Positions 10,305-47,900 of a stretch of DNA of 64,000 nucleotides are shown here, piece by piece. The stretch's first letter is position 1. Every line of letters begins with the position of its first letter. The stretch spans positions 558,001 to 622,000 of the forward strand of contig JADANN010000202.1 of assembly GCA_018806985.1 (NCBI GenBank), read 5' to 3'. The stretch is from Angiostrongylus vasorum. Lineage: Eukaryota > Nematoda > Chromadorea > Rhabditida > Metastrongylidae. The position numbers were made by a program, and so were the translations under genes. The notes below the pieces were generated by a model, which ran no database searches, was not told the origin of the DNA, and worked only from the letters and a program-made list of their open reading frames with translations.

Positions 10305-10545
10305 GTTAGCTGGCGGATTTCTTTCGTCAGAGCCGCTTTCTATGAGTCTTCTTCCACTGAGTATGTCGCGTGGAGCGGTTGGTCTCCACGCGATATACTC
10401 AGTGGAACACTCATAGAAAGCGCTCTGAGGAGGCGAAATCCGCCGAAACGTCAGCTTGTTCGTGAATAAAGGATAAAAATAACACCTCGTGTTTGCTCAA
10501 CAAGAATACGAAGAATTATCTGATCAATGCCGAGGTTAATAGAAG
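10305..10545 (+). mobile_element. short palindromic PLE-derived element with hammerhead
   Basis: Two arms, about 10305-10375 and 10384-10452, are inverted copies (…CACTGAGTATGTCGCGTGGAG facing CTCCACGCGATATACTCAGTG) around an 8-base loop. Both arms are the terminal repeat of the PLE-1 type. The right arm holds an intact hammerhead core. The left arm holds the same motif with the GAAACGTC part missing. Downstream lie CACCTCGTGTTTGCTCAACA and an ATGCCGAGGTTAATAG at 10527, the start of the PLE reading frame. It looks like a minimal non-autonomous PLE derivative. Confidence 0.7.
10425..10452 (+). ncRNA. hammerhead ribozyme core (best copy)
   Basis: CTGAGGA (10425-10431) matches CUGANGA. GGCG (10432-10435) pairs with CGCC (10441-10444) to give a 4-bp stem II with an AAATC loop. 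GAAA follows (10445-10448), then CGTC (10449-10452) with cleavage expected after the last C. AGC (10453-10455) can pair with GCT (10422-10424) as the base of stem I. Stem III would be only A-C/G-U with no loop, as in minimal hammerheads thought to work as dimers. Hammerheads are established in Penelope-like terminal repeats. Confidence 0.8.
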
Positions 10546-10904
10546 GTCGTATGTGGGATTTACTTCGTTGTGTTCACCAGTCTATGTGCGAATCTGACAT
10601 TCTTAAACGAGAACCTAGCTAAGAATGAATCAATTCCAAGATTCACAGCTGGCTTGTTAGAACAGTAGTTCCAAGGTGGTCAGCTTCTCGTCGAATCATA
10701 AAGGCCAGTCCTGGGAGGGTTTTTACCGTGTGCTTCTGAAGAATTCGTGTGAATAGTCTCGTCATATCATCAAATAATATTTGAATGGATATGTGTTGAA
10801 ATCAACTGTGTCGTTTATGAGGGTTGGCTACCTGAATACCTAAGTTAGCATTGTTTTTCGATGTTTCTCCATTGCATAACCCAATATCGCATGCATCACA
10901 CTGT

Positions 10905-11252
10905 GTGAATCGCAGCACTTCTTGCATTCGGCTGGTTTCCTCTCATTCACCATCCACGAAGGTCTTCAAACTTTTTTTGCGTGTGTGCCTGTTGAGAATT
11001 TTTTGTTTTCGTCACGAATGTTGTTGAATGATGGTTGTCGATTTTTTTCTGGAATCCTGGCATAGCCATGCTAGAAAGCGTTCGCACGTTGATTGGAGGA
11101 AATCAGATTGTTTCAGGCAAGTCTGGTATCAGTTTTTCGTTCCCGATGGGATTAGAGCCTTGGTGAGCCGGGCCAGTGGGGAGTCAAACCAGTGCCAGGT
11201 CGCGTTGGCCCATCTGCATAATGAACGGGCCCACTATCACTGCACTACTAAT
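10905..11252 (-). repeat. SINE3 (tRNA-derived)
   Basis: On the minus strand the head starts near 11252 with AGTAGTGCAGTGATAGTGG (box A-like) and a box B-like GGTTTGACTCC. The central block follows (CCAAGGCTC, then TACCAGACTTGCCTGA), and the body runs to AAGACCTTCGTGG. The central block is shared with SINE1, whereas head and tail are not. Confidence 0.75.
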
Positions 11253-11593
11253 TCCTTTTTATCAATGTTTAGAAAATGAGGGTTTGATGTAAACTGAATA
11301 CAAAATTTGAAGAATATGGACTGTTGTTAATATCTTAAAGAAAAACTTGTATCCATTGCAAGTCGAGGCCTTCGCTTCAGTGCGAAAACAGTAAAAATTT
11401 TCACAGCACCACCGTGGAGAAACAGTTACGAATCGTTTTATAAAAGATTATCATCAGACAACCATGAAATTTGAAATCACAGCTTTGTCGAAGTTCCATT
11501 CTTCGTGCTTTCTCTCACCATTCGGAGCGATTTTATGCTCAGTTGAAGATTTTAAGGTGGGAGTTTGTATTTTTGGAACTTCAGTTATTTCAG

Positions 11594-11778
11594 CATTTCC
11601 GTACAGCCGTTGTTCTGCAAAAGATGACACGATTGGACTGGGAGAAACAAAAGCATCCGCATAAATCTGCAGCAAAACTTATAGACTACCTTCGACGTAC
11701 AGGACATGATGTTGATAGTATGATTGAGAACGATCAGAAACAAAAGGCCGCTCTCGCTGAAATTCTGTCACGGCTGCG
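11594..11778 (+). CDS. NADK2 exon a
   Basis: Acceptor GTTATTTCAG, donor GCG|GTGAGC. Encodes HFRTAVVLQKMTRLDWEKQK and about 40 more residues ending AALAEILSRLR. This corresponds to the N-terminal part of the NADK2 catalytic fold. It starts in phase 0 and ends in phase 2. Confidence 0.85.
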
Positions 11779-44477: not shown

Positions 44478-44720
44478 GTTATCATTATTACTGCTATTAT
44501 TATTATCGTTTTCATTATTATCGACCTTATTATTATTGTCTTACACAGATATTCTCTATGTTTTAGATCTGTCGAAGATTTTCGATTTGTTGCAAAACAA
44601 ATAGGCCCTAGGTTGTCGTCATTATCATTGTTACTGTTTTGTTATTCAGTATTTTCAAAGCCTTTTCCCGTTTCATCATCGTACTCACTCGTTCTCTCAC
44701 TTTCCAAATAAAATAATTTC

Positions 44721-44728
44721 CGTTTTAG
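44721..44728 (+). promoter_or_regulatory. probable spliced-leader acceptor of bestrophin
   Basis: CGTTTTAG ends 18 bases before the start ATG at 44747 with no in-frame ATG between. Nematode trans-splice sites look like this. Inferred from sequence only. Confidence 0.5.
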
Positions 44729-44746
44729 ATCTCCTAAAATACTAAA

Positions 44747-44926
44747 ATGACCGTCTCGTACAATTTGGACATCTCGTCAGTGACAACACTGTCGTTCGTT
44801 CGTCTTCTCTTCCGATGGCGTGGCTCTATATGGAAATCGGTAGTCGTCGAGCTAACGATATGGATAATTTCGTTCTTGATTATCTCCTACGTGTATCGAT
44901 ATGCAATGGATGAAGATGAAAAAAAG
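44747..44926 (+). CDS. bestrophin exon 1
   Basis: Start ATG, then MTVSYNLDISSVTTLSFVRL and LLFRWRGSIWKSV, a first membrane helix IIS..IISYVYRY and DEDEKK at the donor AAG|GTGAGT. It ends in phase 0, but exon 2 starts in phase 2. Removing one A from the A7 run gives ...DEDEKR-IFERLAAYC, which fits the family. Confidence 0.93.
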
Positions 44927-47900
44927 GTGAGTAACGAGAAATTTTCCTAGGCTTAACCTAAACAAGTTTAACTAGATGGAAAAAAAATATTTTCCTTTTC
45001 AGTTCCCAGGATCGACTTTCTATTAACCCCGGCATTGGAATATGAATGCGTCGTTTTCTTGTTCAGCAATCGCGAGGTTGTTAAATAGCATACATTTACT
45101 TCCATAGAAAAACACAATACAATACAACAGTAGCTGACGTTTCGGCAGTATCGCCTTCTTCAGAGCCTGGAAGGGTATACTGACATACAATTTACTAGGC
45201 CAAACGCTTCAATGACACAAGAAGACGAAAAAATCTATAGTAATTACATGGTCAACAGCTTCTCGAAAAAACTCACCGCTTTTTTACGTGCCTTTCAATG
45301 AGGAAGATTAGAACAGCTGATTATGGTCGCATAAGGTTGATGACTGCACCATCCCACATCAGAAATTGATGCGAAGATACGGGGGTCAGGTCGCGTATGA
45401 ACTCTTGGCATTCATCCCTGCTATTCATTGTAGGGTTTTTGGCATTTATCCAAAAAGCCTCAAGAAGTTTTCGCGCTGGTGTTCTAGTCTCCTGCGCAAG
45501 GATATTGACTTTTACCTCAAAATCGTCCCCGCTGTGCTTTTTGTATCCTATGCGTGCCTAGTGGGGTACTTTGTCTTAGTTTTCGTTTGCCATCTAGGTG
45601 TTCTTTTATACGGATACACGGCACGTAAAAAAGCGGTGAGTTTTTTCGAGAAGCTGTTGACCATGTAATTACCATAGAGTTTTTCGTCTTTTTGTAAGTG
45701 TCATTGAAGCGTTTGGCCTAGTAAATTGTATGTCAGTATACCCTTCCAGGCTCTGAAGAAGGCGATACTGCCGAAACGTCAGCTACTGTTGTATTGTATT
45801 GTGTTTTTCTATGGAAGTAAATGTATGCTGTTTAACAACCTCGCGATTGCTGAACAAGAAAACGACGCATTCATTTTCCTTTTCATTGTGCTGTTAAATA
45901 CAGTCCTTGTGTAACTCACGTTATTTGTGTGCATTCAACTCGTTAGAAAGTCACAAATATATCATAAAAAGGGATGTGTTCGAATTTTGAAACGGACAAG
46001 TTGCAGTTATTGAGATATGCTAAGCATTTTCTCGCTAAAATTTGAACTCCGTGCACAGTTTGGCCGACTTTTCATCGCCTTCGAATATTCAAAAAGGTGT
46101 TCAAAATTCAGAATATTCGAAAGGCTGGCAGCCTACTGTGACACAAAACTCGACTACATTCCGCTTACGTTCATGCTCGGTTTCTTCGTGACGATCGTCG
46201 TCGATCGATGGCGTCAAATTTTCAGCAATATGGGTTGGATAGAGGAGTGATTTGTTTCTTCATTAGTTTTGCTGAAATATTTCTTACTGCATACGTTCCA
46301 AATTTTTCATTAAATTGCATGTGTCCCCATTCTGTTTTATTTCCTTAAATTTTGTTTCACGCTCATTACTGTCTTTTATATGCACGGAAAAGAGGCTGTA
46401 CCTTGTTGCGATATTCGCGAGACTTGGACCCTGGGCCAGTCGAACCATGATAACCATTTTAGGGTGCTCGCGTAATAGCCATTGCGCCACGGACGCTATT
46501 GCTTTGCGTTTATCTCAGGTACTTTTCTACCTAACGCTGCCATCAGCAAACACCCGTCAGTGGAATTGATCTAGGGAGCACAAATCGGCAGTGAACCCAG
46601 TTGAGCTGAGGTTGTAGTCGAAATCACAATGTTAACCCTTTTTTTTTGAAACTAGCTCAAAGAAACTCAAAGCAAGGGCCTCCGTGGTGCAGTGTGCAGT
46701 ACGCGAGCCCCGGGAAGAGTTTCGTGGTTTGATCTGTCCCGGGGTCCAAGTTTCGCGAATATCTCACCAATGTCGTGTTTGTACTTCATATCATACCCTG
46801 CCGTGAAAAATTATAGTGGGCAGCAAATAAAAGGTTAACGCTGTAGCTTGTGTTCAACGTTAATTAAATGGATTTCAGATAGTAATCAATAATTGTTTGA
46901 GTCCATTCATCGATTCTCTGGTACTTTTACAGAGATTACACTTTTTTAGTGTCGCCTTAACAATTGCCACACTCTTACGAGGTGATAGCAATGAAATAAT
47001 ACTTACACGTCGTACAATAATCCGATACATGGTTCTTTCACAGGTAGGTGATAATTTCCTTTCTGAGTTTTCTCCACTTCCAATGGTCTTCAAAATTTAC
47101 AACGAACGAAGACTTTCTAGGTTCTAGTTTTTCGCGATATATCGATGCGGGTGAGACGACGTTTTCCTAATATGGAGTCCATCGTAACCGCCGGTGACGT
47201 ATTCTTCTCGTCTAATTCCTATGGATTAATTCCACAAAAAATCCATTTTTTTCAATAAAATCACATAATATGTCATCTACGCTTTATCCACTTTCTGTAG
47301 AATGAACTTTAATGGTCACAAAAATCTCACTGCTTTTTACAAAATGTACGCGGTAGTTAGACTCTGCAATAAACACAGTGTCGTAAGTTCGATTCTGGGC
47401 CCCCACGCATACAAAGCCCACTATCCCTTCGCAGTCAGCGCAAGTTGATACTTTTTGCATTGGAGGTCACTGTAAGACGTTGTGTAAGCCAAACATGCAT
47501 ACAGGAACTCCTACGCCATCCTAAATGGCGCCCAGCCTATATCGCTTCCTTAGGCGATTCACCAACTGCAAAAGTTTTATCCTTGTTTTGCAATTGATAC
47601 TTGGATATTTGGATATTTGGTGTGCCCAGATTAACTGATTTTGCGGGCAGCAGCATAATTTCCATTCTCCCGTGTTTAGCCTGTTTTGCCATTAAGCTGG
47701 CCTGACGTCCCCCAGGTCAGTCTAACCGAACCTTTCTCAGCTCGTTACGATCCCTGACGGTTGTAGACCCTTGTGACTCAGAGGGAGATATGCCAGTTTG
47801 CGACTGGTTTGATACCAGGACGGTGGTGGATCCTTCCACTGATTTACTTTTAGCTGGTGTTCCCAGTGGAAACGCGGGAATCCTACTCAGCTTGGGAGAC

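What the first reader, a model, noticed from the sequence alone, without database searches (positions are those of the whole stretch)
10425..45780. Eight hammerhead-ribozyme cores in the terminal repeats of Penelope-like elements
Cores at 10425 (+), 12326 (-), 15039 (+), 22799 (-), 25615 (-), 27039 (+), 45136 (-) and 45753 (+) all show CTGA(G/A)GA, a short stem II, GAAA, then CGTC and AGC. Stem II varies in sequence between the two subfamilies (GGCG/CGCC versus GGC/GCC) while the catalytic bases stay fixed, which is what selection on an RNA fold would leave. Hammerheads in Penelope-like elements are established; this nematode set with a zero-loop stem III is a useful extension.
Basis: partly seen in the sequence, partly recalled or inferred. 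Interest (0 to 1): 0.85.

Follow-up and report, generated by a model that had tools for sequence, protein, structure and literature searches.

The report
Minimal hammerhead ribozymes in nematode retroelements
The eight motifs are real hammerhead-ribozyme sequences lying in the terminal repeats of Penelope-like jumping genes of a roundworm, a kind of RNA enzyme already described in these elements, here in thousands of copies and usually with one extra base in the catalytic core.

Summary
Confirmed. All eight cores are at the stated places (0 in 100 shuffles). The genome holds 7,433 exact cores ending CGTCAGC and 1,643 ending CGTTAGC (reversed patterns 0). They lie in pseudo-LTRs of Penelope-like elements: RT/endonuclease homology lies beside them, and five of the eight are followed, 74-101 nt after the predicted cut, by the ORF's ATG. 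The host is a strongyle nematode by its RT relatives. This is the known helix-III-less, dimer-type hammerhead: a new member of a known kind. Rfam reports no hammerhead; I attribute this to the missing helix III. Insertion junctions do not pile up at the cut, so cleavage is not shown to make the template. Cleavage itself was not tested.

The parts
10417..10461 (+). Hammerhead core, canonical junction (no extra A), in a solo pseudo-LTR beside a snap-back palindrome (10312-10444); predicted cut 10452/10453
   Evidence: one of 18 genome copies without the extra base
12317..12362 (-). Hammerhead with extra A, 3' pseudo-LTR, sense to the RT; predicted cut 12326/12325
15031..15076 (+). Hammerhead with extra A in the inverted pseudo-LTR at the other side of the same element (antisense to the RT); predicted cut 15067/15068
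22790..22834 (-). Hammerhead with extra A, stem II with one A.C mismatch, 3' pseudo-LTR; predicted cut 22799/22798
25606..25650 (-). Hammerhead with extra A, 5' pseudo-LTR of the same element, direct orientation; stem I damaged, stem II with one mismatch; predicted cut 25615/25614
27031..27075 (+). Hammerhead with extra A, downstream of RT/EN remains on the same strand (26485-26818); one mismatch in each stem; predicted cut 27066/27067
45127..45171 (-). Hammerhead with extra A, 3' pseudo-LTR of a 5'-truncated copy; predicted cut 45136/45135
45745..45789 (+). Hammerhead with extra A in the inverted pseudo-LTR beside that copy; predicted cut 45780/45781
22665..23126 (-). 3' pseudo-LTR; its end lies 33 nt (11 codons) inside the start of the ORF
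25481..25942 (-). 5' pseudo-LTR, direct copy of 22665-23126 (about 90% identical)
25496..25513 (-). ORF start (ATGCCGAGGTTAATAGGA), 101 nt after the predicted cut, in frame with a homologous stretch at 25238-25462
23029..24545 (-). Penelope-like ORF remains: RT 23736-24413 (RVT_1, just below the curated cut-off) and C-terminal stretch aligned by homologues that carry GIY-YIG
12533..14426 (-). Penelope-like ORF remains: RT 13449-13874 (RVT_1, above the cut-off) and endonuclease stretch about 12557-13084
12259..12586 (-). Pseudo-LTR arm, inverted repeat with 14807-15134 (about 90%)
14807..15134 (+). Inverted pseudo-LTR arm
43396..43441 (+). Decayed copy of the hammerhead in a pseudo-LTR remnant
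   Evidence: E 2.1e-5
27918..27962 (-). Decayed copy; stem II and the extra A kept, core broken
   Evidence: E 0.55

Best explanation
Each motif is a minimal type-I hammerhead ribozyme in the pseudo-LTR of a Penelope-like retroelement (RT plus probable GIY-YIG endonuclease) of a strongyle nematode. The RNA would cut itself after C17 (or U17) of GAAACGUC|AGC, 74-101 nt before the AUG of the element's ORF. Helix III is only the self-complementary ACGU, so a single copy cannot close it; two copies, such as the two pseudo-LTRs of one tandem transcript, must pair into a double hammerhead. SHOWN here: core, stems I and II, palindrome, position in the pseudo-LTR, copy number, one compensated stem-II pair, near-universal extra A after A9. 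INFERRED: RNA cleavage, the dimer, and its role in resolving tandem transcripts. The integrated 3' pseudo-LTRs run across the cut site, and insertion junctions show no excess there, so the RNA that is reverse-transcribed is probably uncut at its 3' copy; cleavage is more likely slow, dimer-gated or late.
For: Exact cores: 8 in window against 0 in 100 shuffles; 7,433 + 1,643 genome-wide against 0 for the reversed patterns. Stem II: its four pairs form in 173, 178, 166 and 166 of 193 usable sequences of 200 listed; pair 2 is G-C in 97 and A-U in 64, and among 67 distinct stems 56 are paired there against at most 52 in 2,000 shuffles. Element: RVT_1 (above cut-off; just below); 115 RT relatives, those with an organism name all strongyles; RT/EN homology within 3 kb of 33 of 45 exact copies; an exact ORF start follows an exact core in 16 of the 30 ORF starts in the contig range that both listings cover; ATG at 74, 74, 100, 101, 101 nt in five of eight window copies, in frame with homology in the one tested. 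Precedent: passages of PMC11167929, PMC7761336, PMC6466107.
Against: No Rfam hammerhead match even up to E 10. No compensatory change in the window; three of four stem-II pairs do not beat the shuffles on distinct stems, and the one that does may be a single subfamily event. The listed cores were selected on the core and palindrome, so their invariance is no evidence by itself. The double hammerhead is not the minimum-energy fold for any of six class sequences: dG -25.3, -23.1, -23.3 for classes A, D, E against dimer minima -30.8, -29.2, -34.1; -15.1 against -26.0 for B1, -7.9 against -21.1 for C, +0.9 against -23.9 for B2, whose stem II is broken; it is also weaker than two separate monomer folds in all six. 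Dinucleotides other than CG in the ACGU site look like one-step decay: of 100 listed of 1,008 with the C changed, 84 are one-step, 6 double changes give another palindrome, 10 do not (counted by eye; 5.3 of 16 expected if indifferent). Three of eight window copies have no ATG behind them. Only one element in the window has two direct copies, and both have stem mismatches. No excess of junctions at the cut. No cleavage assay.
Confidence: 0.88

Rival explanations
1. The motif is a conserved DNA or RNA signal of the element (binding site for its RT/endonuclease, promoter or leader element) that keeps a hammerhead-like sequence from an ancestor but no longer cleaves.
For: The leader downstream of the core is also conserved between subfamilies (AACCTCGYG..TTGCTNAACAAGAA); Anolis work found the HHR not needed for insertion in vitro (PMC11167929 passage); the extra A moderately lowers trans-cleavage in the viroid CChMVd (PMC3705267 passage).
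Against: Both stems are kept without being required by the search, and one stem-II pair is compensated; a protein site would not need that.
Confidence: 0.1
2. The copies belong to non-autonomous metazoan retrozymes (small tandem repeats with type-I hammerheads that spread as circular RNA) rather than to Penelope-like elements.
For: Type-I hammerheads in thousands of copies also mark retrozymes (PMC7229834 passages).
Against: Among the first 100 listed cores no same-strand neighbours lie within 500 nt; all six pairs closer than 500 nt are head-to-head. 33 of 45 copies lie beside RT/EN homology.
Confidence: 0.02
3. Chance or low-complexity matches.
For: A looser core pattern gives 3.7 matches per shuffled window, 10 observed.
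Against: Full pattern: 0 in 100 shuffles, 0 genome-wide for the reversed pattern; flank-only homology.
Confidence: 0.001

Closest known systems
Minimal type-I hammerheads of Penelope-like elements (Cervera & de la Pena 2014; Lunse, Weinberg & Breaker 2017; primary papers not held, seen only as citations and through passages of later papers)
   Same: Type-I core, place in pseudo-LTRs, helix III lacking, palindrome that allows a double hammerhead, thousands of copies in animal genomes
   Different: Here a strongyle nematode; an extra A after A9 is almost universal; whether that is already in the primary papers I could not check
Hammerhead of Poseidon from Anolis carolinensis (PAc; PMC11167929, passages)
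   Same: HHR in the pseudo-LTR close to the ORF start; tandem or partial-tandem copies; RT start near the beginning of the ORF
   Different: In PAc the ORF starts at stem II and the cut is 26 bp inside it; here the ATG is 74-101 nt after the cut
Plus-strand hammerhead of chrysanthemum chlorotic mottle viroid (PMC3705267, passages)
   Same: Extra A between A9 and G10.1
   Different: A viroid, not a retroelement; no homology claimed
Penelope families of the rotifer Adineta vaga (PMC3846280, passages)
   Same: pLTR of Pen2a includes the first 12 codons of the ORF; direct and inverted pLTRs; palindromes at inverted junctions
   Different: Low copy number there; thousands here
Newt and ASBVd double hammerheads (PMC6155905, PMC6466107, passages)
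   Same: Weak helix III, activity as dimers
   Different: Satellite DNA or viroid

Membership tests
Hammerhead ribozyme | CUGANGA ... GAAA ... UH core | tested here: met
   8 of 8 in window; 9,076 exact in genome; an extra base after A9 in most
Hammerhead ribozyme | Stem I and stem II flanking the core | tested here: met
   Stem I at least 3 pairs in 35 of 45 copies; stem-II pairs formed in 166-178 of 193; mismatched in some copies, among them 22796, 25612 and 27039
Hammerhead ribozyme | Match to an Rfam hammerhead model | tested here: not met
   0 at gathering, no hammerhead among 23 matches up to E 10; RF00008 over the genome 0, but that search rang in no control genome either
Minimal dimer-type hammerhead of Penelope-like elements | No own helix III; palindrome between GAA and the cut base | tested here: met
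Minimal dimer-type hammerhead of Penelope-like elements | Two copies in direct repeats of one element | tested here: inconclusive
   One element in the window (22796, 25612); the other pairs are inverted; adjacent listed cores under 3.5 kb apart: 6 direct of 20
Minimal dimer-type hammerhead of Penelope-like elements | Cleaves RNA in vitro as a dimer | not testable with these tools
   No assay
Penelope-like element with endonuclease | Reverse transcriptase of the Penelope type | tested here: inconclusive
   RVT_1 in two ORF pieces (above, just below the curated cut-off); relatives carry PF00078, often PF26215, some PF01541; no RT tree was made, so 'Penelope type' rests on RT plus GIY-YIG plus pseudo-LTRs
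Penelope-like element with endonuclease | GIY-YIG endonuclease | tested here: inconclusive
   Pfam gives nothing on the short pieces; homologues with PF01541 align through 12557-13084 and 23029-23289
Penelope-like element with endonuclease | Pseudo-LTRs, direct or inverted, ending in the first codons of the ORF | tested here: met
   the repeat of the 22.7-25.9 kb element ends 33 nt into the ORF
Metazoan retrozyme | Head-to-tail repeats of 150-400 bp with a hammerhead each | tested here: not met
   No same-strand neighbours within 500 nt among the first 100 of 7,433 cores

The most novel reading that the evidence does not exclude
Strongyle Penelope-like elements keep a distinct hammerhead core: helix-III-less, dimer-gated and slowed by an inserted A10, present in the bulk of every subfamily examined in this genome. 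It would be tuned so that the template RNA survives reverse transcription and cleavage comes only when two copies meet.
Probability: 0.3. Interest if true: 0.55.

Novelty: new member of a known kind. Interest (0 to 1): 0.33.

Why it matters
It places the minimal Penelope hammerhead in a strongyle nematode at very high copy number, shows that the Rfam hammerhead models miss it in this window, and offers a testable point: does the extra A, known from one viroid to change the cleavage rate, slow or tune a retroelement ribozyme whose role is still called a mystery? The negative result on insertion junctions bears on that role.

Tried and rejected
Rfam models: no hammerhead; I attribute this to the missing helix III, since the session's own model R1 works, but the Rfam models themselves were not inspected. 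Covariation inside the window: none. Alternative palindromes in the ACGU site: 1,008 variants with the C changed and 1,025 with the G changed (100 of each listed). The second list is one-step by construction; in the first I counted by eye 84 one-step, 6 other palindromes (TA 4, AT 1, GC 1) and 10 other double changes, so no sign of pairing selection. H17: A plus G together 130 against 7,433 C and 1,643 U (spacer 13-14, 12-15 and 10-15 in the others); A and G not counted apart. Junctions at the cut: 100 listed of 122 B1-type and 70 of 73 A-type leaders whose G12 place is not G; most are decayed cores; the 26 and 11 that differ by 4 or more letters share 0, 1, 2, 3 bases before the cut in 6, 5, 10, 5 cases (B1) and 0, 1, 2, 3, 4 bases in 2, 2, 4, 2, 1 cases (A), so no peak at the cut; several are plain deletions, and no control at another position was run. 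Solved structures: no hit for the RT piece. Host by SL1 RNA: not completed. Retrozyme reading rejected. No phylogeny of the RT was made, so the clade of Penelope-like elements is not named. Primary papers of 2014 and 2017 not held; of all other papers cited I saw passages only. In one search, of 50 exact copies with full flanks, seven fell in 'other' and were left out of the class sequences; class D there is one copy.
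Full report
WHAT IS THERE. The pattern CTGANGA-N(8-22)-GAAACGTCAGC matches the window eight times and 100 shuffles never. A looser core alone would be weak (10 matches against 3.7 expected). A model built from seven of the copies finds the eighth at E 3e-9 and, in 264 kb (window and 200 kb of flanking DNA), 49 matches up to E 10, 30 of them up to 0.01, seven being the training set. Rfam reports no hammerhead.

GENOME SCALE. The 280-Mb genome holds 3,704 + 3,729 = 7,433 exact cores ending CGTCAGC and 826 + 817 = 1,643 ending CGTTAGC, with 0 for each pattern read backwards. 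The tool calls these counts whole, though its general notice says that counts of repeats are lower bounds. Only the first 100 places are listed, so listings and loci L021-L050 are samples from the first contigs, not random ones.

THE ELEMENT. RVT_1 is found in two ORF pieces (36.7 bits against a cut-off of 29.6, 29.1 bits, just below). So the host is probably a metastrongyloid or close; SL1 RNA could not be searched. Homologues that carry GIY-YIG (PF01541) align through the C-terminal remains, while Pfam does not recognise the short pieces. Five of the eight cores are followed by the ATG of the ORF (ATGCCGAGG or ATGCCGGGG): 74 nt after the cut in class A (10425, 12323) and 100-101 in class B (22796, 25612, 45133); 15039, 27039 and 45753 have none. 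In the one element tested the ATG is in frame with a homologous stretch 50 nt further on. The direct repeat of the element at 22.7-25.9 kb ends at 22665 and 25481, 33 nt inside the ORF. In A. vaga the Pen2a pLTR also includes the first 12 codons (PMC3846280 passage), and in the Anolis element reverse transcription starts near the ORF start (PMC11167929 passages). Orientation in the window: five cores sense with their RT remains (12323, 22796, 25612, 27039, 45133), two in inverted repeats (15039, 45753), one solo (10425).

FOLD. Stem I pairs GGCU with AGCC or AGCU; 35 of 45 distinct exact copies have at least 3 uninterrupted pairs. Stem II is GGCG/CGCC, GGCG/UGCC or GACG/CGUC. In 193 usable listed cores of 200 the second pair is G-C 97, A-U 64, G-U 16, A.C 8; among 67 distinct stems 56 pair there, shuffles reach at most 52 in 2,000 trials. 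The other three pairs do not exceed shuffles (50, 47, 46 against means 50.2, 48.4, 47.9). So there is one compensated switch between subfamilies, plus ordinary decay. In the window alone there is no compensatory change. ACGU before the cut base is self-complementary and has no loop, so helix III can form only between two copies. A nested double hammerhead can be drawn for six class sequences, but it is the minimum-energy fold of none, and class B2 has almost no stem II; nearest-neighbour energies leave out the core's own contacts.

THE EXTRA A. Seven of eight window copies and 180 of 193 listed genome copies have A between A9 and stem II (others G 7, C 4, U 2). For the stem GGCG/YGCC, 4,789 copies have one base there and 18 have none; window 10425 is one of the 18. 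The plus hammerhead of chrysanthemum chlorotic mottle viroid has the same extra A, which moderately lowers trans-cleavage, while U raises it (PMC3705267 passage). I saw no statement on A10 in the Penelope passages that I read, but these are passages only and the two primary papers were not held, so no claim of novelty is made.

ROLE. PMC7761336 calls the role of these minimal hammerheads a mystery (passage); PMC11167929 reports protein-assisted HHR cleavage that is not needed for insertion in vitro, and no RNA-seq ends at the site (passages). Two observations here fit that: integrated 3' pseudo-LTRs run across the cut, and leaders without an intact core show no pile-up of junctions at the cut (37 clearly different upstream stretches among 170 examined of 195; no control position was run). 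I therefore favour slow, dimer-gated or late cleavage over cleavage that makes the template. This step is inference.

VERDICT. Real, well placed, and a known kind of ribozyme. What is fresh is scale, host and the extra A.

Noticed in passing
window 10312-10444: Snap-back inverted repeat (about 80% self-complementary) directly before and into the 10425 core, resembling the palindromes at inverted junctions described in A. vaga Penelope elements
   Followed up: partly
window 42273-42596: Two inverted arms of 154 nt, 89% complementary, 16 nt apart; match mir-2300 and mir-4662 models below their cut-offs; perhaps a hairpin-forming transposon
   Followed up: no
L012:5815-5974 and L018:844-929: Another subfamily with stem II GACG/CGUC-like and U17; in both loci two copies lie head-to-head within about 100 nt
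   Followed up: partly
window 20796-20840 (-) and 55784-55826 (-): Weak model hits (E 0.04 and 0.07) that look like decayed copies of that other subfamily
   Followed up: partly
Downstream of the cores, e.g. window 45056-45079 (-): A second block, AACCTCGYG..TTGCTNAACAAGAA, is conserved between subfamilies between cut and ATG; possibly a signal for reverse-transcription start
   Followed up: no
Genome: The 18 copies without the extra base are 16 on + and 2 on -, while the 4,789 with it are evenly split (2,389 and 2,400); unexplained
   Followed up: no
window 17179-17399 and copies near 9056, 21759, 27210, 34142, 37644, 50485, 56027: A separate dispersed repeat family of about 110-220 nt in at least eight copies, both strands; no link to the hammerheads was looked for, though one copy lies about 150 nt after the 27039 core
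   Followed up: no
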